The position numbers were made by a program, and so were the translations under genes. Shown here piece by piece: positions 24,745 through 61,623 of a stretch of DNA of 64,000 nt (position 1 is its first letter; each line of letters begins with the position of its first letter). The notes beneath the pieces were generated by a model, which was given only the letters and a program-made list of their open reading frames with translations, ran no database searches and was not told the DNA's origin. Source of the DNA: Yponomeuta sedellus (Eukaryota; Arthropoda; Insecta; Lepidoptera; Yponomeutidae); the NCBI GenBank assembly GCA_934045075.1, contig OW203722.1:6195264-6259263 (forward strand), given 5' to 3'.

Positions 24745-24750
24745 CTGGTC
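24745..24750. repeat. Left target-site duplication CTGGTC of the viral element
   Basis: Identical to 41151-41156. Six-base duplications are characteristic of Polinton/Maverick integration by their retroviral-type integrase. Confidence 0.93.
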
Positions 24751-24873
24751 AGTAGGATGTTATTGGGCATTCTGGACCAGCTTCCATTCGTTTGAGCTCA
24801 CGACGCACCGCGCCGGTTGGCGCGGCTTGTCGTTCACTCAAACTCATTACATCTGTTCCAGAATACCCAATAA
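24751..24873. repeat. Left terminal inverted repeat of the viral element (also a hairpin)
   Basis: All 123 bases match the reverse complement of 41028-41150. Bases 24760-24873 alone form an imperfect hairpin: two 55-nt arms with 41 matches around a GGTT loop, with the perfect GC-rich centre CCGCGCC-GGTT-GGCGCGG. The hairpin could be a terminal-protein or replication signal; that role is inference. Confidence 0.95.
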
Positions 24874-25005
24874 TATTGATTGATTCTGAATTTTACTTGC
24901 GGCAGGAAATGAAATGATGTTAGTAACACAGATAAATACTGAAGTTTAATCGTGATGATCGCATTTCAGTAATGAGGACATCACTGGTAACATATTTCTC
25001 CAAAA

Positions 25006-25695
25006 ATGAAATTTGTTAAACAACCTACATCACTAAATCTTGAGAATATTGATGTAGGATCTGAAAAAAATACATATCGTCACGGAAAGCTTTTACCAAA
25101 CACCATCCGTTGTATAGTTTGCGGACCGTCTAACTGCGGAAAAACAAACTTAGTCCTTGGGTTACTTTTACATCCTAATGGTTTACATTTCCGTAACGTG
25201 TACGTTTATTCGAAAACGTTGTATCAACCAAAATACATATTTTTAGAGAAGGTAATGAATCTCGTTCCAGGAATACGTTATTATAAATATCGCGATAACA
25301 AAGAAGTCTTAAATCCAAGCTTAGCGTCTCAAAATTCTGTCATTATTTTCGACGATGTTGCCTGTGAAAATCAAAATAACATTCGTGATTACTTTGCCAT
25401 GGGTAGACATAAAAATATAGACTGTTTTTATTTGAACCAAACTTATAGCAAAGTCCCAAAACAACTGGTTCGCGACAATGCAAATCTACTCATCATATTC
25501 AAACAGGATGATATTAACTTACGTCATATTTATGATGAACATGTGAACACTGATATGCCTTGGCATCAATTTCGCGAACTTTGTTCACAAGTTTGGAAAG
25601 ATACATTTAGCTATTTAGTGATTAATAAAGACTGTCAAAGAAATAACGGATGCTACAGAATGAAATTCGACACCTTTATTACTTTCGACGAGTGA
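25006..25695 (+). CDS. Viral genome-packaging ATPase (FtsK-HerA / A32-like)
   Basis: The 229-aa product powers DNA packaging into the capsid. Walker A reads GPSNCGKT at residues 40-47 and Walker B VIIFDDVA at 112-119. A FYLNQTYSKVPKQLV segment at about 141-155 holds the polar sensor-type residues common to this family. Length suits adintovirus and Polinton ATPases (about 200-260 aa). The gene is the first after the left TIR, 132 bp inside it, with AAAATG context at the start and a TGA stop. A gap of 81 bp separates it from the next gene. The ATG at 25006 is the only one giving the full N-terminal strand before Walker A. No frameshift is seen. Confidence 0.92.
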   Translation: MKFVKQPTSLNLENIDVGSEKNTYRHGKLLPNTIRCIVCGPSNCGKTNLVLGLLLHPNGLHFRNVYVYSKTLYQPKYIFLEKVMNLVPGIRYYKYRDNKEVLNPSLASQNSVIIFDDVACENQNNIRDYFAMGRHKNIDCFYLNQTYSKVPKQLVRDNANLLIIFKQDDINLRHIYDEHVNTDMPWHQFRELCSQVWKDTFSYLVINKDCQRNNGCYRMKFDTFITFDE

Positions 25696-25776
25696 GATAC
25701 ATAAATGCCGTTTTTTTTAAATCAGAAGCCACTTTCTTATCTTCTTTATATGCGAGTAGTTGTAAAATAAGAAAAA

Positions 25777-26721
25777 ATGTGTGATGAAAAATCAATTAAA
25801 CAACAAATAATTAAGTCTGCTGAGGCTGTTAAAAAGAAGGTTCAAAACATGAAAAATACTAAAATGGATTCTGAGTTGGCATTAGAAACTATGTTCAAAC
25901 CAGTAACAGATCCACTTAAACAGCTAACGAGAACCCCGTATCAAGAACAGTTAAGTAATGAAGATGTTGATTCGCTTGAACATTTAGCACGACAGTCTAC
26001 ACCTACGAAGAAACGAAAATTTTCTGAAATTAGCTCTTCAAGGGAATCACTCCAAGAGGTATCGAATGCTAGTAACAGCGATGATAACATAAGTGACTCT
26101 GAACTGAATCAAAGTCTTAGAAATAACATGAGTGACATATTTTTTGAAACAAATTCGGATGGTGCTTCAACACCAAATGCAAAGTCTTTATCGTCATGGT
26201 CTTTATCATCAGAAGTATTCAAAGATGTACCTTATGGAATTAGATTGGAAAATGGAAAACCTATGATAGGATCAGCACCGCTCTCCATAACTAATGATGC
26301 ATTTGAAATAGCAGGTCATTCGTATGTCAAAACTAATGGACTCAGTGAATTACTTTACAAAAAAAATCCTGATCTAAACATTATCACTGAAGATGATAAA
26401 AGGAATTATAAATTTATACTAATAAGCACAAACGCTCATCGACGTAAATATGATCCCAATCAACCAATCAATAGCAACAGAGGATTTAAGTATTTACAAA
26501 TTGTAAAACCCTTATTATGTTCCGCCAATGTTTCCAAAGGAAAGGGTTTATCATTGCTTAAAAAAGTTGATAACAAAGTAGATTACATTTTTTGGAATGA
26601 TCCAAACGAATTAGTTGAAACATTGAAATTATTAATAGCTTCGAAAGATGCCGGTAATACTGGCTTAGATGATGAAATTGTATCAGTTTTAACAGAACTG
26701 AAAAAACGTGGTGTGATATAA
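25777..26721 (+). CDS. Conserved adintovirus/Polinton protein of unknown function (314 aa)
   Basis: The N-terminal half (1-145) is polar and probably disordered, with a KKRK nuclear-import-like cluster at 78-81 and serine-rich acidic stretches. A folded region follows at about 150-240 (YGIRLENGKPMIGSAPL, then GLSELLYKKNPDL, then YKFILISTNAHRRKY). The C-terminal 30 residues include GNTGLDDEIVSVLTELKKRG. I recall this arrangement from a family of arthropod proteins tied to Polinton-like viruses (listed, I believe, as DUF8207); that name should be checked. Its place between ATPase and integrase is constant in such elements. A virion or DNA-binding role is possible but unproven. An AATAAA lies just after the stop. 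Confidence 0.75.
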   Translation: MCDEKSIKQQIIKSAEAVKKKVQNMKNTKMDSELALETMFKPVTDPLKQLTRTPYQEQLSNEDVDSLEHLARQSTPTKKRKFSEISSSRESLQEVSNASNSDDNISDSELNQSLRNNMSDIFFETNSDGASTPNAKSLSSWSLSSEVFKDVPYGIRLENGKPMIGSAPLSITNDAFEIAGHSYVKTNGLSELLYKKNPDLNIITEDDKRNYKFILISTNAHRRKYDPNQPINSNRGFKYLQIVKPLLCSANVSKGKGLSLLKKVDNKVDYIFWNDPNELVETLKLLIASKDAGNTGLDDEIVSVLTELKKRGVI

Positions 26722-26789
26722 AATGAATAAATACTTATGTAATCTATATTTTATTTTATTTCTACTCTAACCTTCACACTATTTACAAG

Positions 26790-27152
26790 ATGAATATAGA
26801 TAAATTTGGACATCATGTTCATAAAAGACTGCGTGTGTCAGATCCATTAAATTTGGTTCCTATAAACACAGGGCTAAGTAAAAATGAGTCAGGAGTTTAC
26901 GACTTAAAACAATGTATATTGAGAGGATTACCGTTAGCTGTAGCAGCAGATGAAGCTGTTAGCAAGGAGTATGTAGAAAAAAACAATAAATTATATTGTA
27001 AAAAACAAGATTTCATTAATGAACTTAAAAGTATAAAAACTCAAATACAACTGCTACAGAAACAGTTAGATGAGAAGTGTTCAAAGGTAGAAGCGAGTAA
27101 TATTATTAAAGATCATATAGTAGCACTCAGAGACTCATCGAAACCAGCATGA
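26790..27152 (+). CDS. Small coiled-coil viral protein, fibre-like (120 aa)
   Basis: The N-terminus NIDKFGHHVHKRLR is a short basic conserved-looking peptide. Residues about 38-62 (LKQCILRGLPLAVAADEAVS followed by KEYVE) resemble the shaft/collar motif LPxPxxxxDAVxKxYVD of phage and adenovirus-type fibre proteins. Residues 70-110 form a predicted coiled coil rich in K, Q, L and E. A trimeric fibre or spike attached to the penton would fit, but this is inference from pattern only. The stop overlaps the integrase start by four bases (ATGA at 27149-27152), suggesting coupled expression. Confidence 0.7.
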   Translation: MNIDKFGHHVHKRLRVSDPLNLVPINTGLSKNESGVYDLKQCILRGLPLAVAADEAVSKEYVEKNNKLYCKKQDFINELKSIKTQIQLLQKQLDEKCSKVEASNIIKDHIVALRDSSKPA

Positions 27153-28081
27153 GCAAACAATCTGTTGTAAATGAAATCCATAAAGCAGCTAGAAGAAATT
27201 TCCCACGTCGTTCTGTTATTTTAAAAGGGATTGATGATTTATGGCAAGCCGATTTGATTGATATGCAAAACTATCAGAAGGTTAACAAAGGATTCAAATT
27301 TATTTTAGTAGTCATCGATGCTTTTTCTAAATACGCATGGATCGCTCCATTAAAGAATAAAACAAAAACTGAGGTGTCTCTAGCGTTTGATAAGGTTTTA
27401 CAAGAAGGCCGATCACCTGCTAATTTACAAACCGACAAGGGTACCGAATTTCACAATGACGTTTTTCAGAAGCTTACGAACCGATGGAAAATAAATCATT
27501 ATTCAACTTATTCAACAAAAAAAGCGTCTATAGTAGAAAGATTAATAAGAACTTTGAAGAGCAAGTTGTTTAAACATTTTAGCTTGTTTGGAAATTATAA
27601 GTGGATTGGAGAACCTTTATGTGATATAGTTAAGAGCTATAATAATACTATGCATCGCACTACAAAACATATGCCGTCTGAAATAAACAAGTTAAATGAA
27701 TCACTCGTTGCATGTAATATAAACAAATCACAACCTTCCTTACCTGCAAAGAAAATTAAATTTCGTGTTGGAGACTTTGTCCGTATCAGCAAGCACAAAG
27801 GAGATTTTCAAAAAGGATATACACCAAACTGGTCTACCGAATTATTCACTGTTGTAAAAGTAATAAAATCTATACCCACAACATATTACATACGAGATCA
27901 ACATTGTATACCAATAAAAGGTTGTTTTTACGAACACGAACTGCAAAAAACTAGCTGTCCCAATATTTATTTAGTTGAGAAGGTAATTAAAAAAAAGGGA
28001 AACAAATATCTTGTTAAATGGCTCGGCTTAGGTCAAGAGGAAAATAGTTGGATTAATAAAAGTGCTATAATAAAGCATTGA
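27149..28081 (+). CDS. Retroviral-type (rve) integrase with C-terminal chromodomain
   Basis: The 310-aa enzyme would insert the linear viral DNA into the host genome. The RNase H-fold core shows the catalytic triad D35 (LWQADLID), D96 (LQTDKGTEF) and E130 (ASIVERLIRT), with 60 and 33 residues between. Residues about 225-270 form an SH3-like strand region (FRVGDFVRISKHKGDF). The last 40 residues are a chromodomain (YLVEKVIKKKGNKYLVKW followed by the SW dipeptide), which in related elements binds histone marks and steers target choice. No N-terminal HHCC zinc motif is visible. All catalytic residues are intact, consistent with the clean TSD and TIRs around the element. Confidence 0.95.
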   Translation: MSKQSVVNEIHKAARRNFPRRSVILKGIDDLWQADLIDMQNYQKVNKGFKFILVVIDAFSKYAWIAPLKNKTKTEVSLAFDKVLQEGRSPANLQTDKGTEFHNDVFQKLTNRWKINHYSTYSTKKASIVERLIRTLKSKLFKHFSLFGNYKWIGEPLCDIVKSYNNTMHRTTKHMPSEINKLNESLVACNINKSQPSLPAKKIKFRVGDFVRISKHKGDFQKGYTPNWSTELFTVVKVIKSIPTTYYIRDQHCIPIKGCFYEHELQKTSCPNIYLVEKVIKKKGNKYLVKWLGLGQEENSWINKSAIIKH

Positions 28082-28130
28082 AGTATATTACTACAGATTA
28101 GTTAACTTATTTTTCATTACATCGTTAGTT

Positions 28131-28859
28131 ATGAAAGGGAAAGGACTTCTCAATACTTTAATCAATAATTTACCAATAGAGTTACACTTACCAGGCTACA
28201 ACTACTGCGGTCCAGGTACTCGATTACAAGAACGTTTGCAAAGAGGCGATAAAGGCATAAACCCTTTGGACAGCGCTTGTATGCTGCACGACATAGCTTA
28301 TTCAAAGTATTCAAGTTTAGAAGATCGGCATAAGGCTGACTTAGAGCTAAGAAAGATGGCAAAGCAACGATTAAAATCAGAAGATGCTAGCAGAGGTGAA
28401 AAAGTTGCATCATGGTTGGTGAATAAAGTAATGAAAGCAAAAATTAAATCGGGTGCTGGAATTAAATCATTCAAAACTTCTATGGCTAAATTAAAATCGC
28501 ATCTGAAAAAAAAGAAACCTAAAAATATTCAAGATGCTATTCAGTTTGCATACTTAGCAGCAAAAAAAATATTTCATAAGAAAAATAATATGAAGCTGCC
28601 AAGAATTATTCCCATCCCTAAAACTGGAGGAATACTTCCACTCATTCCTATTTTTGCTGGTCTATCAGCATTGGGTTCTTTAGCTGGAGGTATTGGTGGA
28701 ATAGCAAAAGCAGTTAATGATTACAAGTCAGCCCAAAAAAATCTTTCTGAATCCGTGCGTCACAATAAAATGATGGAATCGATCTCCTTAGGCAAAGGTT
28801 TATACATCAAACCATACAAGACAGGTAAGGGATTGTGCGTACATTCTTCAAAAAACTAG
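28131..28859 (+). CDS. Minor capsid protein with phospholipase A2 domain (parvovirus VP1-like)
   Basis: Residues 19-80 form a group-XII/parvoviral-type PLA2 domain: the calcium loop NYCGPG at 24-29 and the catalytic dyad HD at 53-54 within ACMLHDIAYSKY. In parvoviruses this enzyme opens endosomal membranes during entry. A lysine-rich middle (110-155) precedes a glycine-rich hydrophobic segment at 157-196 (LPLIPIFAGLSALGSLAGG) like membrane-active or core proteins of adenovirus-type virions. LAGG at 184-187 fits the adenain cleavage rule. GKGL occurs three times (3-6, 221-224, 232-235). It overlaps the protease gene by 25 bp. The domain assignment is firm; the entry role is by analogy. Confidence 0.9.
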   Translation: MKGKGLLNTLINNLPIELHLPGYNYCGPGTRLQERLQRGDKGINPLDSACMLHDIAYSKYSSLEDRHKADLELRKMAKQRLKSEDASRGEKVASWLVNKVMKAKIKSGAGIKSFKTSMAKLKSHLKKKKPKNIQDAIQFAYLAAKKIFHKKNNMKLPRIIPIPKTGGILPLIPIFAGLSALGSLAGGIGGIAKAVNDYKSAQKNLSESVRHNKMMESISLGKGLYIKPYKTGKGLCVHSSKN

Positions 28860-29230
28860 TTAAAAGGTTACCCAGACGAGCACTGAGTAATATAGATTTA
28901 ATATATTATACTCGGGACATCCCATACTTTCGAGGTGTCTATATGAGAGACACTTTACCAAGCAAATCAAATAACATCGAGTGCGCTATCCTGAATCTAG
29001 ATAATTCAATAAATCCGGGAACTCACTGGGTAGCCTACATTAAGATAAATAATTACAGCGTGTACTTTGATAGTTATGGTTTAAAACCACCTGTAGAATT
29101 AATCAAGTACTTAACAAAAAACACTAACGTTTATTATAGTTATATGAACTATCAACAAAACAACACCTATAATTGCGGTCATTTATGCATAAAATTTTTA
29201 AAAACATTCTGGTTGAAACATTTATATTAA
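28835..29230 (+). CDS. Adenain-like cysteine protease (C5/Ulp1 fold), virion maturation protease
   Basis: The 131-aa product shows the adenain order of catalytic residues: H64 (GTHWVAYI), D79 (VYFDSYG), Q108 and C114 (NTYNCGHLC), with five residues between Q and C as in adenovirus protease. It is shorter than human adenovirus protease (about 204 aa) but typical for Polinton and adintovirus homologues. It would cleave capsid precursors such as the neighbouring PLA2 protein. The start overlaps the PLA2 ORF by 25 bp in another frame, so initiation is probably by leaky scanning or splicing. An unusually basic N-terminus precedes the folded part. Confidence 0.93.
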   Translation: MRTFFKKLVKRLPRRALSNIDLIYYTRDIPYFRGVYMRDTLPSKSNNIECAILNLDNSINPGTHWVAYIKINNYSVYFDSYGLKPPVELIKYLTKNTNVYYSYMNYQQNNTYNCGHLCIKFLKTFWLKHLY

Positions 29231-29261
29231 GAAATCATAAACTATTCTCACCATTATTACG

Positions 29262-29933
29262 ATGTCATTCACGCTATCAATAACCGGTTGTAAACCAGCT
29301 TTGTCAACATTTTATTCGCCGGCTCTGCAGCTTGATGGTGAATATGAATGTGGGCTGATCTTTTTTTCGACGTTTAATTCGATTCCTAACATAGAATGCT
29401 ACAACAACAAATTTCATTATGGCGACAACGAAATGATTGAAATACCCGAAGGATCATACGAGCTATTAGATATAAATGACTTTTTAAAAACAAATTTAGT
29501 AGACTGTACGTTTAATTTGATATGTAACAATAACACTTTGAGCACAAAAATAATTTGTTCAAAAGATATTCATTTTGAGAAATCCGGTTCAATCGGAAGG
29601 ATATTGGGTTTTGGAAATCAGACTCTTAAAGCTAATATATTACATGAGTCTCTCTTCCCTGTAAACATTCTACCAACAACCATCGTTCGAATAGAATGTG
29701 ATATCGTGAGCGGATCGTACATAAATGGGAAGCCTAGCCATATAATTTACGAATTTGCACCTAATGTACCGCCAGGGTACAGGATTATAGAAATCCCAAA
29801 AAATTTGATATATTTCCCAGTAAATCAAAATACAGTTAGCGAGATTAATATAAGGATTTTGGATGCAAATAACAACCTTATAAATCTACGACAAGAAGAA
29901 CTACAGTTATATTTACACCTAAGACGAAAATGA
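29262..29933 (+). CDS. Penton-like minor capsid protein (single jelly roll)
   Basis: The 223 residues are rich in beta-strand patterns with few charged helices. Features I associate with adintovirus/Polinton pentons include SIGRILGFGNQTL at about 109-121, a SGSYINGKPSHIIYEF stretch at about 150-165 followed by VPPGYRIIEIP, and the C-terminal QEELQLYLHLRRK. The gene lies directly upstream of the hexon gene, the conserved order in this virus group. It would form the fivefold-vertex capsomer. The assignment rests on pattern and synteny; no catalytic motif exists to test it. Its stop is overlapped by the ATG of a 48-aa ORF. Confidence 0.82.
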   Translation: MSFTLSITGCKPALSTFYSPALQLDGEYECGLIFFSTFNSIPNIECYNNKFHYGDNEMIEIPEGSYELLDINDFLKTNLVDCTFNLICNNNTLSTKIICSKDIHFEKSGSIGRILGFGNQTLKANILHESLFPVNILPTTIVRIECDIVSGSYINGKPSHIIYEFAPNVPPGYRIIEIPKNLIYFPVNQNTVSEINIRILDANNNLINLRQEELQLYLHLRRK

Positions 29934-30076
29934 TAGATTTCATAAATAAAACATTGGTACCCGAAACCAAAGATCTCAGTACAACACATCCACCGCAACA
30001 GAAACCACCTGCTAAAAAGAAAAAACTGACTAAGGAAAATAAACAATTTCTCAGATACTTAAAAGTCATAAAATGA
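29930..30076 (+). CDS. 48-aa basic micro-ORF nested between penton and hexon genes
   Basis: The ORF starts with an ATG whose last two bases begin the penton stop (ATGA at 29930-29933) and ends with a TGA that overlaps the hexon start in the same way (ATGA at 30073-30076). The 48-residue product is proline-rich, then very basic (PPAKKKKLTKENK at 26-38), with a hydrophobic end. Four-base overlaps on both sides, filling the entire space between two capsid genes, argue strongly for a real gene. A basic virion-core or protamine-like peptide, as in adenovirus, is possible; that function is inference. Confidence 0.7.
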   Translation: MIDFINKTLVPETKDLSTTHPPQQKPPAKKKKLTKENKQFLRYLKVIK

Positions 30077-31287
30077 ATATCTTAAATATCTTGGATTCTT
30101 TCGCCTACGACAACAGCATTGAAAGCTACCAAATCCATTCGTATAAGCCCTACATTAATAGTTTTAACAAAAACGATGAAATACGCATTCCCATCAATCA
30201 ACAAGACTTATACGTCTTACCGTCACAGAGTACACTATACATCGAAGGTTCTATCACAGTGCACCGTCCAAATGGCGATAAAAAAGAGAGAGTGAGTAAT
30301 ATTGAGTTGGTGAATAATGCAGCGCTTTTTCTTTTCCAAGACATTCGATATGAACTAAATGGCGTAGAAATTGATAGGATAAAAAATGCTGGGATCACAA
30401 CTACTATTAAATCATTGCTCTCGATGAATGAAAATGAATCAAAAATGTCACGGCTATGGGGGTGGGACATTGATGGAATAAAAAATACTACTGGTAATTT
30501 TTCCGCCTGTATCCCATTGAATAAAGTTTTAGGTTTCGCTGAAGATTATAATAAAATAATAATGAACTGTAAACATGAGCTGGTTCTTTTGCGTAGTAAT
30601 ACAAACCTTAATTCTATTAAATTAACCACTAATGAAGTGTTAGATGACATAACCATTAACAAAATTGTATGGAGAGTACCGCATATAAAAGTATCTGATC
30701 GTGAAAGAGTTAACTTGCTGAGATGTTTGGAGAAAGATAGACCTATCAGTTTAGCATTTAGGAATTGGGATCTCTATGAATACCCTCTTTTACCACAGAC
30801 TACAAAACATACTTGGTCTATAAAAACCACATCTCAATTAGAGAAACCACGTTATGTGATTATTGGTTTACAAACTAATCGGAAAAGTTTAGGTATGAAA
30901 GACATGTCTCACTTTGATCATTGTTATGTACGTGATGTCAAGGTTTTTTTAAATTCAACTTACTTTCCATATGAAAGTCTCAATATTAAGTTTACTGAAG
31001 AAAGGTATATGATATTATATGAGCAGTACGCTAGATTCCAACAGTCTTACTATGGACGTCGGTGTGAGCCGTTGTTAAATCTGAAGGATTTCAAAGATAA
31101 AGCACCATTATTTGTAATAGATTGCTGCAGGCAAAATGAGACCCTGAAGACAGGTCCCATTGATGTTAGAGTAGAAATAGAGAGTGATTTAGAAATACCA
31201 GATCAAACTTCTGCTTACTGCCTCATACTAAACGATTGTGTAATCGAATATAAACCACTTTCTAACATCGTTAAAAAAATAACATGA
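30073..31287 (+). CDS. Hexon-like major capsid protein (double jelly roll)
   Basis: The 404-aa product is the expected length for the double-jelly-roll major capsid protein of adintoviruses and Polintons. It shows strand-rich stretches with conserved-looking landmarks: EIRIPINQQDLYVLPSQSTL near residue 40, LFLFQDIRYELNGVEIDR near 95 and MSRLWGWD near 125. There are further strands, including YFPYESLNIKF near 300 and SYYGRRCEPLLNLKDF near 330. Gene order (penton, small basic ORF, hexon) supports the call. Trimers would build the icosahedral shell. The frame is intact. It overlaps the following gene by four bases (ATGA at 31284-31287). Confidence 0.88.
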   Translation: MNILNILDSFAYDNSIESYQIHSYKPYINSFNKNDEIRIPINQQDLYVLPSQSTLYIEGSITVHRPNGDKKERVSNIELVNNAALFLFQDIRYELNGVEIDRIKNAGITTTIKSLLSMNENESKMSRLWGWDIDGIKNTTGNFSACIPLNKVLGFAEDYNKIIMNCKHELVLLRSNTNLNSIKLTTNEVLDDITINKIVWRVPHIKVSDRERVNLLRCLEKDRPISLAFRNWDLYEYPLLPQTTKHTWSIKTTSQLEKPRYVIIGLQTNRKSLGMKDMSHFDHCYVRDVKVFLNSTYFPYESLNIKFTEERYMILYEQYARFQQSYYGRRCEPLLNLKDFKDKAPLFVIDCCRQNETLKTGPIDVRVEIESDLEIPDQTSAYCLILNDCVIEYKPLSNIVKKIT

Positions 31288-31772
31288 ATTCTGAACATAT
31301 TTTTGTAGATTTACAAGGATTTAGAGATTATAAAAATAATTTTATTATTAAAGAGTTTGCTCTCGCTACTAAAGAATTTACTATGGTCTACTTGGTAAAA
31401 CCTCCTTATCCATTTTCTACTTTATCAGATAGCGAAAAAAAGCAAGTTGTTTGGTTGGAAAAGAATAGAGGAATTTATTGGCGTGAAGGTTTTATTGACT
31501 ACCGCGAATTTCATAGGTTAATTTATAGTTTATTGAGGAATAAGAAAATTTTTGTAAAAGGTTTAGAAAAAATCATGTGGGTAAATAAACTTTGTGGTGA
31601 TTGTTGTGTTATTAATATCGAGGAAAATCAATGTCCTAATATAAAATACCTGCATGATAAATATAGTGTATGCAATTTTACGTGTTTTTCTCACCACAAA
31701 CAATGTGCGTTGAAAAATGTACTATGTGTCAAGAAATGGTTTTATGAAAATAATGTTATAGAATTTATTTAG
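31284..31772 (+). CDS. Uncharacterised viral protein, 162 aa, cysteine-rich C-terminus
   Basis: The N-terminus FVDLQGFRDYKNNFIIKEFA followed by LATKEF has the look of the first strands of an RNase H/DEDD exonuclease-like fold (an acidic D in strand 1). I remember similar insect proteins linked to Polinton-like elements, without a known role. A KNRGIYWREGFI segment follows, then IFVKGLEKIMWV, then eight cysteines between about residues 104 and 147 and a HHKQC, possibly zinc-binding. It is the last rightward gene, overlapping the hexon stop by four bases, followed by AATAAA at about 31815. Only one of the acidic residues of an active exonuclease is plain, so an inactive fold is possible. Confidence 0.7.
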   Translation: MNSEHIFVDLQGFRDYKNNFIIKEFALATKEFTMVYLVKPPYPFSTLSDSEKKQVVWLEKNRGIYWREGFIDYREFHRLIYSLLRNKKIFVKGLEKIMWVNKLCGDCCVINIEENQCPNIKYLHDKYSVCNFTCFSHHKQCALKNVLCVKKWFYENNVIEFI

Positions 31773-31880
31773 AATAAGCAAGTATTTATGTAACTTTTTT
31801 ATTGAAAGTAAGAAATAAATGTAAATGTATTTAAAAAAGAAAACATGTTTTATTTAATTAATTTTTAATTTAAAACGAAA
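31773..31880. terminator. Convergent polyadenylation region of the viral left and right gene blocks
   Basis: A plus-strand AATAAA near 31815 and a minus-strand AATAAA (TTTATT on +, near 31850) lie between the two converging transcription blocks. Confidence 0.6.
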
Positions 31881-32351
31881 TTAATAACTATTGCACATAT
31901 TTTTAGAAATGTTCTTAACTACGTTTTCCACCATGTCCATTATTTCGTCTACAGGATCTATCACAACATATTGGGCACTTAACACCGCACTTTCACTGTT
32001 TGTGTCCTTACACTCATTTAAGTCGAATACTTCTATTTTTATCAACCGATTTCCTCTTCTTGCCGCCTTGCTAACCACATATGATGTAGACGTGGAGTCC
32101 TTTGCAACCCGTTTCCTTGAAGTCTTACTTTTCCGCTTCCCCACGTCTGATGGAGCCGGGTTTCGTATTTCTTCGACATCACTATCGAACCCACTCAAAA
32201 TATTTTGCGCGTAGTAGTAAGGGTCAGTCGGATCAGTCTCGCCTAAAATCTGAAAAAAACAAAAAAAAAAATTATTAAAAATATTCAAACCTATTTCAAA
32301 CTGTGTAATATAAATTGGATGGAAAAAAATAATGCTTACCGAAATCGACAT
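31881..32351 (-). CDS. Small viral nuclear-type protein A, probably two exons
   Basis: A short first exon (32340-32351: ATG plus three codons) is followed by GTAAGC. A 90-nt intron ends in a long T tract and TTTCAG, and the main exon runs 32249-31881. Spliced length is 126 aa. The intron happens to be open (30 codons), so an unspliced 156-aa form is also possible. The product has an acidic start, an SDVEE motif, a strongly basic KRKSKTSRKR patch (nuclear import-like) and a C-terminal helix. I do not recognise a family. Its layout resembles the product of the gene at 36922-38528, suggesting a paralogous pair. A regulatory or DNA-binding role is inference. Confidence 0.65.
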   Translation of the reverse strand: MSISVSIIFFHPIYITQFEIGLNIFNNFFFCFFQILGETDPTDPYYYAQNILSGFDSDVEEIRNPAPSDVGKRKSKTSRKRVAKDSTSTSYVVSKAARRGNRLIKIEVFDLNECKDTNSESAVLSAQYVVIDPVDEIMDMVENVVKNISKNMCNSY

Positions 32352-33298
32352 GTTTTCACGTCTGCTGATCTTCTAGTTGGCTCGAACGATGCAGTAACAA
32401 TAAATTACTGAACCACCAAATATAAAATGGATTTGTAGATGAGTGTAACTTACCTATTCATACGTTTCGATCGCTCTAGAAAATTAATCCTGTCTCTTTT
32501 AATACATATAAGAGTGAGCGAGCTCGAATTCGTAGTCAGCATTATCAATATCGAATGTGTTTGAATCAAGTATGTCATTGCTGACTAAGTAAATAGTAGT
32601 CATTGAACCCTTGCGCGCTATGCAACATCGATGCGCCTCCCTTGCTGTTTGCAACATCGCTAACACCTTGACTTGACCTACTTTTGACTGTCTCGTCGGT
32701 CTAGTGATGATAGCGTTTGATTACTATTGCAGAGGTCGTGGGCTCGATTCCCACAGGGAGCTGTCATACTTTCAGTAGACACGAAATCAAAACTTCATTG
32801 AATATAGTTTAGCTCTCCTCATCCCACCGCGCTCAAGACTATGTCTATAGCAAAAATTTCTGAGATATGTAGGAACTAACAATACTTACATATTCTTTTG
32901 TTTTTGTAACATTAGGTAACAATGTTAGGTCATGGAAATAAAAGAAGCTGGTAGTATAACCCAATTTATTCACCCAAAACTATACTTATTAGCTTATAGT
33001 ACATAACACTTTTATAACTAAGTACCTATCTATTTTAATTCATTACATTATTAGTTCACTTAAATAAATACGCTATTCTTAACATACCTAAAGAGCTTTA
33101 GCTTTAACTTGAAGAGCATAAGAACGAAAACATAATATTAAGCTTATTCCACACTAGCTCTATCGCGGCGGTTACCGCAGCCGCAATCCATACACATAGC
33201 ATCTAAGACTGAAACAGATCTATGAAATACATCATATCACGATATTTTGATTACATATTTTTAAATTTTATCCCATTGTCAATTTTACTATCTTATTT
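32352..33298. other. Viral intergenic region with a tRNA-like SINE remnant
   Basis: It probably holds the leftward promoter of protein A and the 3' end of the polymerase transcript. Bases 32695-32765 form a tRNA-like sequence (B box GGCTCGATTCCCA preceded by an A-box-like TCTAGTGATG), a SINE head inserted in or captured by the virus. No ORF is supported. Confidence 0.5.
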
Positions 33299-36200
33299 TC
33301 ATAATATTGAGGTATGGCCCCACGCTTTAGTTGAGATTTGATCCCGATGAATCAAACGTTTATCATCATTTCTCGATAGAGCTATTTTGTTGACACTTTG
33401 CGTAAATATTTCATGTTTTATCGATTTAAACAAGATATTTCTCTTGCGCAGCACATTACCTTCAAACAAGGTCTGCTCATAATTACTAAAGTTAAGACCG
33501 CGAATAACGCTCATTTTTACTCCTTTGGCCTTTTTGACAGTTTTTTCTAAAGTTTTGAAACAGTACAGTTTTGATCGTAATCCTACAAATTCTGTAATAA
33601 TTTCACCACCCATTTCATCCTTAAATAGCCCAGGAATCTTTTTGTTTTTTAATGGAATTTGATGTATATTATTACTATCGTAATTACTCGTATCAAAGTA
33701 AGGTAGTAAACGGTATTTCAAATCTAGGAAGAAGTCCTCTGTGGACAAATGATAGATGAAGCTATCCGTATCAGTATAGCACATCTCAACATATTTCCCA
33801 TACATAGGTTTAATAATTGAATAATGAAAGTCATACATGTGGCTTTTGGATAACTCAAGAACAGTAAACCCAATGTAGATAGGTTTATCTAAAACCACAC
33901 GTTCTGGTTTCATTTGGATGGCAACCAAATTTTCGGAAAAAACTGAAGCACTGTGAAAGTTTGGACGGGCTATCAATTTTTCTGCCGATGTGCATTTTTT
34001 CGTTTTGTTTTGACTATCGCTCCATTGATTTACCAAATAGACGTTTACTCTGTGTTCAGTATTTTCTATAGTCTTTCCAAATATGCTGTTGTTCAAGAGT
34101 TTGAAAAAGTCTTGTTCGAAAGTTGATTGGGCTTGTTGCCTCAGTTTTGTATTAAGTTCAATGTATTGTTTGAGATAAGCACTTTGACGAAAAGTAATGA
34201 CTCTATGGATTTTTCTTAGTATTAATCCATGTTTCAAGCATGTTTTAAGATGCACATAATGAATAACATATCGATATTTATCGTATAGGTTAGGGATTAA
34301 TTTCGAACTCTTTCCACCGGGTGGTATGCATCGCTCAGGACAAAATGGGAAATCATTGTGATAGTCGTGTAGGTGTGTGGGATAAATAATATCCACTTCA
34401 AGAATATAACCAAAAGATGCATTATCAGGAACTGATGTGATATCAATGGTATTCACTTCAGACTGTTCCAAAAATCTGAAATCTGACAAAGGTAATACTT
34501 GAGACATGCTGAAGCCGTATAAATTGTTAGCATCAATATACGTTATGAAGGACTCGGGACGTGATGGGTCGTACTCAGACATGTATTTATTGTTTGCTTT
34601 CGCATGTCGCTTGGAACACATACATACACCACCCCGTATTCCATCCTGAATCATCCGAATAATCGCTAAGTCGCTAAGCAATTCTAATCTGACCTTAGTT
34701 TTCAAAAGCATCGCATCAAATGATAAGCTGGGTGCTGTGAGGTAGAATGCCGGGTCTAATTGATAATATCGTTTACATGTTTTGCGGAAATGTTCAAAAA
34801 TATCGGCTAGTAGCAAGACATCTGTTTTAACGTATAGATCAGTGTATTCACCTAAGTTACGAATGGAGAAAGTTGACCATACTGACTTGGCATGTTCATA
34901 ATCTTGATCAGAAATTTCTTCACCACTGATAGTATTATAAAAAGCAGATTTGGGTGGGAGGGAATTTTCTTCGTAGCATTTCCAATGTGACATATAGTCA
35001 TATGGATAAACACCTTTGCGAGTGAGTAATTTGAGTTCAGTGTCATTTGCAAAAAATGATTTCAACAACGAGAATTCCTCCACCTTCATTGTTTTCGTGA
35101 GTTTTTCTAAACTGGTACCTAAAAATTTAAATGAATCGATAAATCGAAGTTGGATACCTTCATCTTTCGATAATGGTATATACTTCGTGAAAGAAATATA
35201 GTTTTCTTTTGTTTTAGGTATTATTCTAATCGGACCAGGCGCCTCGCCTAGTTCTTTGATAAATAAATGGCAATCGTAGCCTGACAAATTGTGGAAAACA
35301 ACTGGAACAAAATTTGGTAGTTTAAATTGTAAATTACAATGCTTGTGAGCTGCCCCCCGATAGTGACCAGTGATGTGACAGTGGTCTCGAACCTTGTCAA
35401 ATATTAAAAGATTATCACAAATATGACAGCGGACAGCATTTTCAAAATTTTGTGAATCATTATCCGTGAATATAATTTTAATATTAGCTTTTAAAATAGT
35501 GTGTATTTGCTTCATGTCTCGATACAACCATTCTACAAATTTTGATACACAGTCTGATCCCCGATAGCTGACGTAGCGATTATACTTGGCATCCACTGTA
35601 CAAACAATATAGTAACCAAACGCTGAGGGCACATGTTGTTGTAGCAGGCTAGTGCTCGCAATGTTAGGGTCTGCTTCACACCCCAGATGACGTTGAAGCA
35701 TAGTCTCAAAATCAGCATAAATGATAAAGGGTATGTTTTGTTTTCGTTCGTAATTCTTAAATTGAAGAACCGACCCTTGGTTAGGAAGAGCTGTAGCAAT
35801 ACCACCACATGCATGAATGACTAGTTCATTAGATGTTTTAAAAAATAACAGACATGATGAGCAAAAATGCAGTTGCTGATGGTGTTTAGATATTTGGCTT
35901 CTAACCAGACGGGGAAGGTTTTTGATCAAACAAAAGTGAGAGCCCTCATCATTCTCGAGAAATAGCAGATGAACGATATTTTTCGCAGTGGAAGACTCTG
36001 ATCTGTATAGTGGACCTACAACAGTTTTTTTGCCTTGTAAGCCATACACAAAAATAGCGATATCTGGATTATTTTTTTCAAACACCGGGATGTCAGAAAA
36101 AGTTACTGGATATGATAAGCCTTGAGTGTTAAAAATATCGCGAAAATCGGGATAAGACGAGACACGATCGGGGTGGCTCTTTGAAGGGAATAGAGCAGCT

Positions 36201-36805
36201 GTAACACACCAAAGAAAACAATAAGGATCATCATTTTTTATATTCAAACATGCTTTTTTGTTTTTTATAAATTTTGGTAAATCTATAAACGATGACCCAC
36301 TCAATGGTTGATATTTATTTACATTGATTTCCAAATGAGAGTTACTCAAAAATGTCCAACCGCTATCTCGCTCTTGAAACTCTTCAAGCTTTTTTTTCAA
36401 TGTATTTATGATTTCTGAAAAAATGGAATTGAAGTTGTGGTTCATGTGTATGGTAATGTTTTTCGTGCCAAACGATTTTAGTTCTTGCAAATCGTTTTTG
36501 TACATAAGGAAAAATGAAAAAAGCTCAACATTGACTTTTATGCAAACGTGTTTTTTCAATGAAATATCAATCAGAGATTTTAATTTATTATGGATAGACT
36601 CGAAAAAGGTTTCAATTGAGTGCTGACCATCACCGTTAGCCTGTATCTTATAAGTTGCAATACGATTACGGAATGCAGAGGTCAGAACCTCAACATCTTC
36701 TGACAAATGATGAGTTGCGACTTTGCTTTTGTGGTCAGTGCTGCGCATATGACCCACCCAACTTTTTGGGTTGACAAGAGTTTTGCAAGTAATGCAATAA
36801 GGCAT
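33299..36805 (-). CDS. Protein-primed family B DNA polymerase, 1168 aa, intact
   Basis: It replicates the linear viral genome. Order of parts: an N-terminal C2H2-type zinc finger (C4, C7, H19, H25); a Cys-His domain at about 185-300 of the kind found in Maverick polymerases (YCFLWCVTAALF..HFCLIKNL); a second zinc finger (CSSC..H) at 315-331; exonuclease motif I YADFE (D365, E367); a HNH/endonuclease-VII-like knuckle CHIC..DHCHITGHYRG..HC (460-490); Exo II NLSGYDCH (506-513); Exo III YVKTD (658-662); polymerase motif A DANNLYG (758-764), motif B KLLNNSIFGK (902-911) and motif C YTDTD (1010-1014). All catalytic aspartates are present. It lies on the opposite strand to the capsid genes. Confidence 0.97.
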   Translation of the reverse strand: MPYCITCKTLVNPKSWVGHMRSTDHKSKVATHHLSEDVEVLTSAFRNRIATYKIQANGDGQHSIETFFESIHNKLKSLIDISLKKHVCIKVNVELFSFFLMYKNDLQELKSFGTKNITIHMNHNFNSIFSEIINTLKKKLEEFQERDSGWTFLSNSHLEINVNKYQPLSGSSFIDLPKFIKNKKACLNIKNDDPYCFLWCVTAALFPSKSHPDRVSSYPDFRDIFNTQGLSYPVTFSDIPVFEKNNPDIAIFVYGLQGKKTVVGPLYRSESSTAKNIVHLLFLENDEGSHFCLIKNLPRLVRSQISKHHQQLHFCSSCLLFFKTSNELVIHACGGIATALPNQGSVLQFKNYERKQNIPFIIYADFETMLQRHLGCEADPNIASTSLLQQHVPSAFGYYIVCTVDAKYNRYVSYRGSDCVSKFVEWLYRDMKQIHTILKANIKIIFTDNDSQNFENAVRCHICDNLLIFDKVRDHCHITGHYRGAAHKHCNLQFKLPNFVPVVFHNLSGYDCHLFIKELGEAPGPIRIIPKTKENYISFTKYIPLSKDEGIQLRFIDSFKFLGTSLEKLTKTMKVEEFSLLKSFFANDTELKLLTRKGVYPYDYMSHWKCYEENSLPPKSAFYNTISGEEISDQDYEHAKSVWSTFSIRNLGEYTDLYVKTDVLLLADIFEHFRKTCKRYYQLDPAFYLTAPSLSFDAMLLKTKVRLELLSDLAIIRMIQDGIRGGVCMCSKRHAKANNKYMSEYDPSRPESFITYIDANNLYGFSMSQVLPLSDFRFLEQSEVNTIDITSVPDNASFGYILEVDIIYPTHLHDYHNDFPFCPERCIPPGGKSSKLIPNLYDKYRYVIHYVHLKTCLKHGLILRKIHRVITFRQSAYLKQYIELNTKLRQQAQSTFEQDFFKLLNNSIFGKTIENTEHRVNVYLVNQWSDSQNKTKKCTSAEKLIARPNFHSASVFSENLVAIQMKPERVVLDKPIYIGFTVLELSKSHMYDFHYSIIKPMYGKYVEMCYTDTDSFIYHLSTEDFFLDLKYRLLPYFDTSNYDSNNIHQIPLKNKKIPGLFKDEMGGEIITEFVGLRSKLYCFKTLEKTVKKAKGVKMSVIRGLNFSNYEQTLFEGNVLRKRNILFKSIKHEIFTQSVNKIALSRNDDKRLIHRDQISTKAWGHTSIL

Positions 36806-36921
36806 TGTAAATAAAAAGTAGTAAGATTGACCAGGAAACAGATAATTAAAATTTAGGTTTTAGACACAAAAATAAATAGGTAAGTAGCAAAATAATATGT
36901 TTATTATAAATTAAAGGAATT

Positions 36922-38528
36922 TTATTTTATATTTATCTTATCACTAAAAAAACTCGCCTCACTATTATCATACAGTGAATAAACTTGTTTAATAAATTTC
37001 TGTAATACGTCCCAGTGCGGTGTGTCCGTATCAGTCTGCAATTTTATTACCATCAACGCTTTTTTCCACCTCTCTTGAACGTTGGTACTTGCAGCATCGG
37101 TAGTGTTGTAGACCTTCAATTCTATATAGAATTCTCCTTCCGTCGTTGCTGTCCGACGAACGTGACCATTGGCGACCCGCGTCACTAGACTCGACCCCAG
37201 TTGGTGCTGCTCGGGAGTCGCTTTAGCGACCTTCTCTGCGTCTCGCAAAATCCCGAAAAGATCTCCCACCGTCTTTTTCTTTAAGGTGCTTGCAGACCTG
37301 TAAAAGTGAACAATATATTTTAAAACATAAGTACCTTCATAAACTTATACCTATATTCCGATTGGGTAGGCTATCTATAGGAGATACACATACATTGAAC
37401 GAGTATGAAGTGGATGATAGTTTAATATGAAGGGTACATATCTACTTTTGATCTATCCCATATATGTCATTCTTAATAAGCAAATATCCCAAGTGATTCT
37501 TAATAAGCATATCTTACATGGAAAACAAAAATACTACGCGAAGCGGGTATCGAACCCACGACTAGTAAGATGCAAAGTAAACAGTCGACAGCATGTTAAC
37601 CTTTACGAGTACATGCCTGCAATGTAATCAACGATTCAATGACTCAGCGGTGTGCTAGAGTCAAATGACGCGACAACGTAACAACGAATAATATAACGAG
37701 ACTAATTCTATTCCAGTAAACTTTTCCCTGGATGTAAACATTTACCGTAACGATCAATGTTAAGCCGGGTCCGCTGCGCCATGTTACGCGTGTTACAAAA
37801 AATGTAACACGTTATTAAAACAAAAATGGGGAGTGGTATTAACACTTTACGTGTTACGTAACGTAACGTTATATAACAAGTACCTAACGTGTTATACCAT
37901 GTCCCACTTTTATTATATTTAAGTGTTACGTTTTTTGTAACACGCGTAACATGGTGCAGCGGCCCCGGCTTTAGGCTATAGAAAATAAGGTTTAAGGGTC
38001 AAACCTATGGTTTGAATTATTAAGACGAATAAACAACTTTTAGTTATGAAACAAACAAATAAACAGTTGTTATCTCTTTCAATGTTCCAAGATTTTCATC
38101 AACAGCTTGATTACATCGAGGGAATCGTCATTTGAAACGATGTGTAAAGTGTACAATCATTTATAATAAACTATAGATGTATTGTATTCTTACCTAACTG
38201 TCTCCTCAACGTAGCTCGATGCTTTGCGTTTGGAGCTGGTTGGAGTCTTTTGCTTCTTACTCGACTGCACAGCAATAGGTACACCAGAGAATTCAAACTC
38301 GGAGTCAGACCTGAAATAATAATAACATAGTTTTATACCAGTCTTATACATTTAACCTAAACGATTTATACACCGTATTGTAATTACTATACTAGATAAA
38401 TGTAGTGACTGGAACATATTTTTTAGACATAGTTCGGGACATAGTTTTCATATAGGGACTAATACGGTTTAGTCAGTGGAACACGTAAAAAAAAAAATTA
38501 GGATGTAAATAAATATACTTACTAACAT
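36922..38528 (-). CDS. Small viral nuclear-type protein B, multi-exon
   Basis: The last exon is 37297-36922 (acceptor after TTTTACAG; stop followed by a minus-strand AATAAA at about 36904). The upstream exon is 38310-38194 (acceptor after TTATTTCAG, donor GTAAGAAT). The two join in frame. The start is less clear: an ATG-TTA followed by GTAAGT at 38528-38523 is the likely first exon, but joining it to the acceptor at 38310 gives a stop. An acceptor 13 bases further in (exon from 38297) keeps the frame. The product is acidic (SDSEFEF), then basic (SSKRKASS), then a strand-helix C-terminus. The order resembles protein A. The intron contains host mobile elements. Confidence 0.6.
37535..37615 (-). 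repeat. tRNA-like SINE remnant inside the viral intron
   Basis: On the minus strand the B box GGGTTCGATACCCG sits about where a tRNA T-arm would, with a decayed A box upstream. It lies in the intron of the protein B gene. Confidence 0.5.
37763..37970. mobile_element. 208-bp hairpin MITE with TTA duplication (PIF/Harbinger-type), inside the viral intron
   Basis: The ends AGCCGGGTCCGCTGC and its complement match over about 50 bp with few changes. TTA flanks both sides (37760-37762, 37971-37973), the duplication typical of PIF/Harbinger. It carries repeated GTTACG/CGTAAC words. It has no ORF. Confidence 0.85.
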
Positions 38529-40060
38529 TTTGATACCGATGGAGTGACTGGTAGCGAGGAAGTCGTAGATAATTACACCACACGGAGACTGTACTGAACA
38601 GCGTTATCACGTTATCGGAAGTGATGAGAATTTTAGATAAATCAGGGTGTTATAGGTTTATATCCTAAATGTGTATGTTGTTTTTTTATTACAAGTACTG
38701 TAATGAAGTAAATGCGAAAATCGCCTTTATTTATAGGTGTATGAATATAGGTGATTGTTGATAAAAGTAATACATATTACTTTTTAGTATCGAACACCCA
38801 AAATTTTTGCTTTGCCTTCAAAAGTAGGTACTTAACCAAATCATCTTGACCGGTAGCAAGGTCAAGCCTATATATTATTCTCATAATGTCAGCACTATTT
38901 AATAGCTCAAGTTAATGTGGCTGGTTGCCATTGCAACATAATGTGACCAATATATCGATTATTGTAGGTAAGATGTTTCGCAATCAGAAGCTTGCAACGG
39001 ATCCAATAACGTTAACGTAGCAAATTCGTAGGTTTCATACCTAGGTAGGAGTAAATAGTCCTAGATACACATGTTGCAATTTACTTTAGATTTTCTTGAT
39101 CTTAATCAGATAATGTTCGAATTGGGTGAATATTTCACTATAGCAGAAGAAAATAAACTGTTATTTCCAGTTACCAGAAATCGGATGATGAGCTAAATAG
39201 GAAATTATAATTAATTCCTCTAGCTTATCCATAGAAAACATCGTATGATATCGATGAAATTACTATATAAATGTATTTCAGGATAAATAATACTTATCTA
39301 GGTATTCTTTATAAAGCATTTGGTAGACTCCACAATATTATGTGAAAGTCAAACATTAGGTATTAATGATACCTACAGCTAAATATTTTGATGCAACGAG
39401 TTTTTTCCGTGTGGATCTTAGACTAGAGTATAGCTAGTATAGTCAACCTTTGGTTATCTCTTATGTAGGTGATACATTAAAATATTATGACCCCTCTAAA
39501 TTCTTTATTTATGGGTTATGTAAAATTTACTGTATTTATTTTACTGTATGTTACAGATAAATTTAGATAGAAAATGAACGAGAACTGATGTTAGAAAACT
39601 GTTGAAAAAATATAAAACTATCTGCATAGGTTCAGTTACGTATAATGGGATGAGAATAATATCTTCAAGTTTCAATTAAAAAAAGACAAAATGCTGTCGG
39701 TCGTATTTACAAAATCATGATTTCTTAAAATACTTTAACATCAAGTCTTAAAAAAATAATAACATGGAAAATGCTTTATTACCGGAATACCTTTAAGGAA
39801 TGTTCAAAGGAACCAACTTTTATAAATAAAACTGTACTTTTTGACAACATATTTTTTCTTACACCGTGTATACTTCGTATCAAATTTATAACTCCTGCGT
39901 CAACAGCTAAAGGTTGACAATCCCTGCCAGCCACCTATCATATTCGCATTCGCGTTAACTAAAGTGACACGTTAGTAGGAAATAGATTTCCATTAATGAA
40001 AGTATACTTTTATGTGTCAGTGATATTATCATTAATTCACGATTTTACTTAAGTATACCC
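38529..40060. other. Viral non-coding right arm
   Basis: About 1.5 kb between the presumed protein B start and the terminal repeat array. Very AT-rich, with no ORF above chance. It may hold the leftward promoter of protein B. Confidence 0.5.
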
Positions 40061-40129
40061 AAGGATTCAAGTAACTGTAGAAGTACATTTTTCCTACTGT
40101 GCAATGTTTTGTGTTTTCCGTAGTGAACG

Positions 40130-40700
40130 ATAAACAGGAGACTTCAATCTGATCACTAACATTTTTGTGGGAAAAGTAAGGTATTCTTTGTGCCGACCAT
40201 AAAATATGCCTAAAATACAAGTATTTCCTGGTTCTGCCAATCACCCAGTATTTGTGTCACATGAAAAGGATCACAAAATTTTGTTGTGTTGGAATCACCT
40301 TTTTTACAATGGGAGACGTCAATCTGACCATAAAATACAGTTAAGACGAAAATGTTTTGTGTCACTGTTGCGCAAGAAGGTTCATCACATGAAGTCAATC
40401 TGATCACAAAGTAATTTGTGGTGCTGAATCTTTCTAACAGTGGGAGCCGTCAATCTGACCACAAAATATGATTAAGTTGAAATTGTACTTTTATGTTATT
40501 GTATGAAGGGCCATCACGGGAAGTCAATCTGATAACAAAATTTGTGGTGTTGTACCTTGTTCATGTGGGAGACGTCAATCTGACTACAAAACAAACTGGG
40601 TTGAAAAAGCAAAGTTTTGTGTCACTGTTATGAAAAGTAGACACCAGTGGTGTTAAACTCATTCAGTGGGAGAAGCCAATCTGGTCACAAAACTATGACT
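40130..40700. repeat. Tandem array of about 125-bp units near the right viral end
   Basis: Two short boxes alternate. One is GACGTCAATCTGACCACAAA (40315, 40447, 40570) and the other GAAGTCAATCTGATCACAAA (40391, 40519, 40671), with an earlier diverged pair near 40138 and 40265. A pair plus linkers makes a unit of 123-132 bp, about four and a half copies. The boxes are better conserved than the linkers, which suggests selection for protein-binding sites, perhaps replication or enhancer elements. Confidence 0.85.
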
Positions 40701-41027
40701 GGGTAAATACAAGTATCACTTGGAATATTTCATGTCATTGTCTTAATGAGGAAACCTAACCGATACCGCAAATAATGTGTGCTGTTTTATCTAGTATATT
40801 ACGAAACTGCACAAAACATAGCTAGTGGGTAAATACAATTCAGTTGAGCTTGGGGATCCTTTATTTAATTCAACTCAGTGACTATGCGGACCTATCTCCA
40901 CCAAGATGATGGTGAGTTGCATTCACTCAAGCTTCCTAGTGTCATTCGTTTTCATTGATGGAATTTATCATAAACTGTGTAGGTTGCTCGTAAAATTATT
41001 GAAACTATAAATTAGAATCACTCGATG

Positions 41028-41150
41028 TTATTGGGTATTCTGGAACAGATGTAATGAGTTTGAGTGAACGACAAGCCGCGCCAACCGGCGCGGTGCGTCG
41101 TGAGCTCAAACGAATGGAAGCTGGTCCAGAATGCCCAATAACATCCTACT
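41028..41150. repeat. Right terminal inverted repeat of the viral element (also a hairpin)
   Basis: Exact reverse complement of 24751-24873. The outer end reads ..AACATCCTACT. Inside position 41028 the two ends diverge at once. Confidence 0.95.
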
Positions 41151-41156
41151 CTGGTC
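41151..41156. repeat. Right target-site duplication CTGGTC
   Basis: Matches 24745-24750. Confidence 0.93.
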
Positions 41157-47699: not shown

Positions 47700-48094
47700 A
47701 TACTATTCTTATTTTTTTAATGCACTAACCCGTGCTAAGAAAAATTTTAAAAACCTATTTAGAGGCTAAAATTCCACCCATGTCGGGATTTGAACCCGCG
47801 ACCTCTAGCTATCCGTGCCAGCGCTCTTTCCAACTGAGCTAATGGGTGACTCACCGGCATCAGTGAAATTTCGAACCTCTTTACACTATTCTCTGTATTA
47901 CGTACAGGCAATTTACTTAAGCCAGATGTCGCTGCCTGTACGTAATACAGAGAATAGTGTAAAGAGGTTTGAAATTTCACTGATGCCGGTGAGTCGCCCA
48001 TTAGCTCAGTTGGAAAGAGCGCTGGCACGGATAGCCAGAGGTCGCGGGTTCGAATCCCGGCATGGGTGGAATTTTTAGCCTCTAAATAGGTTTT
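47700..48094. mobile_element. Foldback tRNA-like SINE (family F) with 13-bp target duplication
   Basis: Two copies of the same tRNA-like unit face away from each other: left arm 47751-47910 on the minus strand and right arm 47933-48094 on the plus strand, about 160 bp each, nearly identical, with a 22-nt spacer. Each contains an A box (TTAGCTCAGTTGG) and B box (GGTTCGAATCCCGG) with a near-cloverleaf. The direct repeat CAAGTGATTGATT at 47687-47699 and 48095-48107 brackets the whole unit, showing it inserted as one piece into the family C repeat. Confidence 0.85.
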
Positions 48095-61430: not shown

Positions 61431-61623
61431 AGTGCACAGTAGAAATATCGCTGATGTGTAGAATCTTGTGTTGAATTTAGTGTGTGACAGCTGGCAGGTA
61501 TTTATCTCACTATTTAGTCATTTATCATTAGGATATTTAATGTTTGTCAATTTTAATTACTTAATTAAACTTTAGCCAATTATGAGTTGACTTAATTATC
61601 CGACTACCCGCAACAGAAAAAAA

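What the first reader, a model, noticed from the sequence alone, without database searches (positions are those of the whole stretch)
24751..41150. Complete, apparently intact endogenous adintovirus with exact ends
Perfect 123-bp TIRs, a 6-bp target duplication and uninterrupted PolB, integrase, ATPase, protease, penton and hexon genes in one 16.4-kb unit. Seen directly: ends, TSD and catalytic motifs. Known: Polinton/adintovirus gene set. Inferred: capable of, or very recently capable of, virion formation and integration.
Basis: partly seen in the sequence, partly recalled or inferred. Interest (0 to 1): 0.95.

Follow-up and report, generated by a model that had tools for sequence, protein, structure and literature searches.

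The report
Moth adintovirus with frameshifted capsid protease
A virus-like element (an adintovirus) sits end to end in what is likely a moth or butterfly chromosome, and it is predicted to make its maturation protease by a ribosome slip at the end of the gene before it, a trick best known from retroviruses.

Summary
The unit at 24751-41150 is real: perfect 123-bp inverted repeats, 6-bp target duplication CTGGTC, no N inside, and open frames for packaging ATPase, chromodomain integrase, phospholipase-A2 (PLA2) protein, adenain-like protease, double-jelly-roll hexon and PolB. It is a new member of a described kind: its layout matches Sf Maverick 2 of Spodoptera frugiperda except for one extra small frame, and its hexon is 70% identical to that of Spodoptera moth adintovirus 1. 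The 'penton' matched no family here; virion formation is untested.

The new point is the protease. Its frame has no ATG before the conserved part begins and overlaps the PLA2 frame in the -1 register. PLA2 ends A_AAA_AAC TAG, a canonical slippery heptamer. In the 120 listed PLA2 homologues (of 2666) the protein ends in Lys-Asn or within two residues of it, although preceding residues vary, and the residue before Lys is never one lacking an A-ending codon. I infer a PLA2-protease fusion made by -1 frameshifting. Against it: no downstream stimulatory structure found, and no relative's DNA readable at the junction.

Each inverted repeat also folds into one long hairpin (z -8.15).

The parts
24745..24750 (.). 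left copy of 6-bp target duplication CTGGTC
24751..24873 (+). left terminal inverted repeat, 123 bp perfect; a single hairpin of about 120 nt (24757-24876) spans it
25006..25695 (+). packaging ATPase (A32-like), Walker A and B motifs
25777..26721 (+). ORF2, 314 aa, no family match above cut-off
26790..27152 (+). 120-aa ORF, no family match above cut-off; overlaps the integrase frame by ATGA; not among the named Sf Maverick ORFs
27149..28081 (+). rve integrase with C-terminal chromodomain
28131..28859 (+). PLA2-domain protein (parvovirus VP1-like phospholipase; called CAP in Sf Maverick)
28850..28856 (+). predicted slippery heptamer A_AAA_AAC, followed at once by the PLA2 stop TAG
28829..29230 (+). 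open frame of the adenain-like protease, -1 register to PLA2, no ATG before its codon 37 (counted from GTG 28835)
29262..29933 (+). candidate penton, identity not confirmed (position of Sf Maverick ORF6)
30073..31287 (+). hexon, double-jelly-roll major capsid protein, 404 aa
31284..31772 (+). 162-aa ORF, no family match; overlaps the hexon frame by ATGA; position of Sf Maverick ORF8
31881..32351 (-). 156-aa frame of doubtful status
33299..36805 (-). type B DNA polymerase (PolB), 1168 aa
36922..37269 (-). 115-aa frame (GTG start), no family match
37762..37971 (.). fold-back sequence, 78-nt arms 85% complementary, in the gene-poor right arm; MITE-like by shape (inference)
41028..41150 (-). right terminal inverted repeat, identical to the left
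41151..41156 (.). right copy of CTGGTC

Best explanation
This is an end-to-end integrated adintovirus (Polinton/Maverick of the Sf Maverick 2 layout), bounded by perfect 123-bp inverted repeats and a 6-bp target duplication, that is predicted to make its maturation protease as a C-terminal extension of the phospholipase-A2 protein through a -1 ribosomal frameshift. Shown: ends, duplication, gene set, the overlapping -1 register of the protease frame, the slippery heptamer, and conservation at protein level of what it encodes. Inferred: the host is a moth or butterfly; the integrase inserted the element; PolB replicates it by protein priming; most ribosomes stop at TAG and release the PLA2 protein; a minority slip and add the protease, giving a fusion of about 366 residues. 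Such a fusion would carry the protease into the particle in a fixed low proportion, as gag-pro does in retroviruses. The hairpin form of each repeat is shown by folding; a role in replication is inferred.
For: Ends and duplication. Families. Relatives: hexon 82-83% to unnamed contigs, 70% to Spodoptera moth adintovirus 1. Same order and strands as Sf Maverick 2, bar one extra 120-aa frame. Frameshift: PLA2 ends TCA AAA AAC TAG and the -1 frame runs into the protease. Of the 120 listed homologues of 2666, 116 end exactly in KN and 4 have one or two residues after KN. The residue before K is never N, C, D, F, H, M, W or Y (0 of 120; 23 of 120 and 32 of 120 at the two positions upstream of it; 22% overall). 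On a tree, 0 of 36 changes at that position go to those residues, against 35 of 104 at the two neighbours (Fisher p 8e-6, changes taken as independent). Another KN in the same protein that also lies on an in-frame A_AAA_AAT is kept in only 49 of 120. The adenain alignment starts at residue 30, before the first ATG at codon 37. Hairpin repeats: z -8.15, 0 of 200 shuffles.
Against: No stimulatory structure downstream: z -0.91, -1.66 and -1.13, and no H-type pseudoknot of the shapes searched, while shuffles averaged -2.5. In-frame slippery-like heptamers occur in 11 of the 12 frames scanned, so the heptamer alone proves nothing, and AAAAAACTAG is not rarer than chance in the window (2 found, 0.63 expected). 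Dipeptide conservation alone is not diagnostic: a KK at 145, also on an in-frame heptamer, is kept in 109 of 120. The evidence from relatives is protein only; Ser, Pro and Thr make up 109 of 120 at the position before K, so a protein-level cause is possible. The distant IMG/VR relative L001 (32%) does not end in KN. No transcript, ribosome or peptide data.
Confidence: 0.72

Rival explanations
1. The protease is translated on its own from a non-AUG codon (GTG or another) in the overlap, by leaky scanning or reinitiation after the PLA2 stop; the overlap is conserved because it codes in two frames.
For: The frame is open from 28829 and a GTG stands at 28835. Two other overlaps in the element are ATGA stop/start pairs that suggest reinitiation.
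Against: PLA2 residues 236-240, which lie in the same overlap, vary and include gaps, while K and N do not; dual coding of the whole overlap would hold them too.
Confidence: 0.12
2. PLA2 and protease are joined by splicing out a short intron that starts at CAG|GTAAGG (28824/28825) and ends at AG 28859 (35 nt) or AG 28880 (56 nt), both keeping the protease frame.
For: A good donor-like sequence and two in-frame acceptors are visible.
Against: The donor lies on Gly232-Lys233, and Lys233 is kept in only 37 of 120 homologues; 35 nt is very short for an intron (recalled).
Confidence: 0.05
3. An ordinary genomic Maverick, silent or already defective; KN is conserved for a protein reason and the short protease frame is damaged or mis-started in this copy.
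For: No transcription evidence; a fold-back sequence sits in the right arm; a conserved C-terminal dipeptide could serve the protein.
Against: The hexon aligns to relatives over its full length. Sf Maverick PRO is about as short (120 of 133 residues aligned between its two lineages), so the short frame is shared. The no-A-codon test.
Confidence: 0.08

Closest known systems
Sf Maverick 2 of Spodoptera frugiperda (Geisler-type Sf-RVN study, PMC5803895; section 11 part 1 and passages seen)
   Same: Eight small tandem ORFs in the order ATP, ORF2, INT, CAP (PLA2), PRO, ORF6, ORF7 (404 aa), ORF8, then PolB on the opposite strand; its CAP protein (P0341) also ends in KN
   Different: Here an extra 120-aa frame precedes the integrase, the ORF6 position holds 223 aa (148 in their table), exact repeats and a duplication are seen, and a gene-poor right arm with a fold-back is present; the terms 'inverted repeat' and 'start codon' do not occur in that paper's main text, and its two uses of 'frameshift' shown concern other elements
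Spodoptera moth adintovirus 1 (Eupolintoviridae)
   Same: Hexon 70% identical over its whole length
   Different: Only the hexon record was seen; its genome was not available here
Predicted frameshifts in adintoviruses (Buck group, PMC11071296; section 16 whole, other passages)
   Same: Suggests slippery sites in some adintovirus Penton ORFs and a similar relation for Hexon-Adenain fusions
   Different: The passages seen do not mention a PLA2-protease frameshift or conservation across a clade
Retroviral gag-pro frameshift (recalled)
   Same: A_AAA_AAC heptamer before the stop of a structural gene, protease in the -1 frame
   Different: Here a DNA virus with an adenain-like cysteine protease, and no stimulatory structure found
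Bidnaviruses and parvoviruses (PMC4061559, passages seen)
   Same: Polinton-type PolB and terminal repeats in bidnaviruses; PLA2 and hairpin ends in parvoviruses
   Different: Bidnavirus repeats are said there not to form hairpins; this element combines PolB, PLA2 and hairpin repeats in one 16.4-kb unit

Membership tests
Adintovirus (definition in PMC11071296 section 16) | Hexon recognisable by sequence to adintovirus hexons | tested here: met
   70% over 100% of the query to Spodoptera moth adintovirus 1
Adintovirus | rve integrase with C-terminal chromodomain | tested here: met
   rve 3.2e-10 and Chromo 1.3e-6, both above cut-off
Adintovirus | PolB with N-terminal OTU-like domain | tested here: inconclusive
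   PolB core met on a piece; no OTU family hit; only Cys and His motifs at residues 193-196 and 288-291 found by eye
Polinton/Maverick | 15-20 kb unit with inverted repeats, 6-bp duplication, PolB, integrase, ATPase, cysteine protease | tested here: met
   the protease rests on a below-cut-off hit, motifs and gene order; the 6-bp duplication as a family trait is recalled
Polintovirus capsid set | Double-jelly-roll major and single-jelly-roll minor capsid protein | tested here: inconclusive
   Major met (PF21738); minor (penton) not shown
-1 programmed ribosomal frameshift | X_XXY_YYZ heptamer in phase before the zero-frame stop, with a downstream -1 frame | tested here: met
   A_AAA_AAC at 28850-28856, TAG next, protease in the -1 frame
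-1 programmed ribosomal frameshift | Conservation of the site across relatives | tested here: inconclusive
   Protein-level support in 120 of 120 listed homologues; DNA of relatives not available
-1 programmed ribosomal frameshift | Downstream stimulatory structure | tested here: not met
   z -0.91 to -1.66; no pseudoknot of the searched shapes; so the report says 'predicted' throughout
-1 programmed ribosomal frameshift | Trans-frame protein observed | not testable with these tools
   No proteomic or ribosome data at hand

The most novel reading that the evidence does not exclude
Adintoviruses of moths and butterflies as a clade make a PLA2-protease fusion by -1 frameshifting at a conserved A_AAA_AAY next to the stop: a DNA-virus counterpart of retroviral gag-pro that sets how much protease enters the particle. 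With its hairpin inverted repeats, this one element unites parvovirus-like (PLA2, hairpin ends), retrovirus-like (integrase, gag-pro-style frameshift) and adenovirus-like (hexon, PolB, adenain) solutions.
Probability: 0.68. Interest if true: 0.72.

Novelty: new member of a known kind. Interest (0 to 1): 0.55.

Why it matters
As an element it adds one end-to-end copy, with exact ends, to a known lepidopteran family. The frameshift, if real, would explain how these viruses express a protease that is listed as a stand-alone ORF although, in this copy, it has no ATG in the right place. It would give a quick genomic signature (Lys-Asn-stop plus a -1 protease frame) for intact copies. A frameshift-set ratio of structural protein to protease would then be shared by retroviruses and an unrelated DNA virus lineage. 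It can be tested at once on the existing Sf Maverick records and Sf cell data.

Tried and rejected
Splicing of PLA2 to protease: set aside as the main reading because the donor codon is not conserved. Upstream non-AUG initiation: kept as a rival. A plain chance heptamer: the heptamer itself is common, so I rely on conservation only. The genome-contig scan gave one piece, L002, whose PLA2-like frame is cut short, with no readable junction. The phage collection gave no match. The right arm is similar to nothing else in the window except the repeats and itself. Promoter, terminator and AATAAA scans told nothing useful. No dating was attempted, for want of a second copy and a rate. That the PLA2-protease frameshift was not seen in print rests on paper searches and on the passages read only. 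The founding adintovirus paper (Starrett 2021, PMC8502044) is not held and I saw nothing of it, so a mention there cannot be excluded.
Full report
Observation. Beyond the 123 bp the repeat fades (18 of 25 in positions 126-150) and then stops. The unit is 16,400 bp.

Gene content. On the + strand: packaging ATPase, ORF2, a 120-aa ORF, integrase with chromodomain, PLA2 protein, protease frame, candidate penton, hexon and a 162-aa ORF. On the - strand: a 156-aa frame of doubtful status, PolB, and a 115-aa frame. Pfam supports ATPase, integrase, chromodomain, PLA2 and double jelly roll above cut-off. PolB is supported on a piece (4.7e-11), although the whole-protein scan missed it. The protease is only suggestive by profile (0.002, under the cut-off). 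It aligns to adenain 1avp around the His and Cys motifs at a weak E-value (0.17), where two antibody chains and others score better; so its name rests on motifs and gene order. The candidate penton has no independent support. The hexon alignment found no solved relative by sequence.

What it is. The hexon has 2155 homologues, of which the best 120 were listed. The nearest are 82-83% identical, in unnamed contigs. All 9 listed rows that name an organism or virus belong to Lepidoptera (my reading of the names), among them Spodoptera moth adintovirus 1 at 70%. A non-LTR retrotransposon in the right flank (57356-60355) has 269 matches among the 7986 candidates scored; among the best 120, 30 of 30 rows naming an organism are Lepidoptera, the best of them Plutella at 68%. 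The host is therefore likely a moth or butterfly; both lines rest on mobile DNA. The gene order and strands equal Sf Maverick 2 apart from the extra 120-aa frame (section 11 part 1 of PMC5803895).

The protease problem. The frame opens after TAA at 28826-28828, and the first ATG is codon 37 of the listed frame. The alignment to adenain starts at residue 30, so starting at that ATG would cut into the conserved part. From its GTG the frame overlaps PLA2 by 25 nt in the -1 register. PLA2 ends TCA AAA AAC TAG. Read as A AAA AAC this is a canonical slippery heptamer in the right phase, and the -1 frame continues into the protease.

Conservation test. Of 2666 PLA2 homologues, the 120 best were available, 66-85% identical to the query. 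KN is the last dipeptide in 116, and the other 4 have one or two residues after it. The five residues before it vary and include gaps. If the base before AAA must be A, the preceding residue cannot be N, C, D, F, H, M, W or Y: 0 of 120 are, against 23 of 120 and 32 of 120 at the two positions upstream, and 22% over the whole proteins. Fitch parsimony on a FastTree tree gives 36 changes at that position, 0 to these residues, against 35 of 104 at the two neighbours (Fisher 8e-6, which treats changes as independent). Other KN pairs in the same protein are kept in 49, 54 and 0 of 120; but KK pairs in conserved stretches are kept in 95 and 109 of 120, the latter on an in-frame heptamer too, so the weight lies on the contrast with the variable neighbours and on the no-A-codon test. 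I read this as selection on the nucleotides of the heptamer. Limits: protein data only; Ser, Pro and Thr make up 109 of 120 at the position; no downstream structure; slippery-like heptamers in 11 of 12 frames; the distant L001 lacks the feature.

Ends. Each inverted repeat folds as one hairpin of about 120 nt with a GGTT tip. Of 497 random 130-mers of the window one folds as well, and it overlaps the right repeat itself. Both repeats carry the same hairpin mismatches, so the imperfect pairing is inherited and not later decay. Its role is unknown; origin recognition or handling of a single-stranded intermediate is inference. PMC4061559 (passages) says bidnavirus repeats do not form hairpins, unlike parvoviruses. 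Whether related elements share the hairpin could not be tested.

Right arm. From 37.3 to 41.0 kb the longest stop-to-stop frame is 96 codons. A 210-bp fold-back (z -12.86) and a degenerate repeat at 40269-40629 lie there. The element is thus open in its named genes but not necessarily a minimal viral genome; Drosophila-associated adintoviruses are 13.3-14.6 kb (PMC8363768 passages).

Verdict. A new member of a known kind with well-defined ends, plus a predicted frameshift, conserved across the 120 listed relatives at protein level and not met in my paper searches, that would tie the protease to the PLA2 protein.

Noticed in passing
57356-61517: A non-LTR retrotransposon with a 999-aa open reverse transcriptase/endonuclease frame and a 272-aa frame upstream of it, possibly a young copy.
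   Followed up: partly
27149-27152 and 31284-31287: Two ATGA stop/start overlaps (120-aa ORF to integrase, hexon to 162-aa ORF), suggestive of termination-reinitiation.
   Followed up: no
20687-21091: Mariner (Mos1-type) transposase N-terminal fragment, HTH_48 E 2.5e-19.
   Followed up: no
14489-15599: Tandem array with a unit of about 78 bp.
   Followed up: no
14279-14355, 47774-47848, 47994-48070, 52185-52254, 56936-57008: tRNA-Ser and tRNA-Gly calls by ARAGORN, perhaps heads of tRNA-derived SINEs.
   Followed up: no
L002: A contig titled as an Oscillospiraceae MAG carries Polinton-like frames (PLA2-like and integrase-like), so it is probably eukaryotic or viral DNA binned with a bacterium.
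   Followed up: partly
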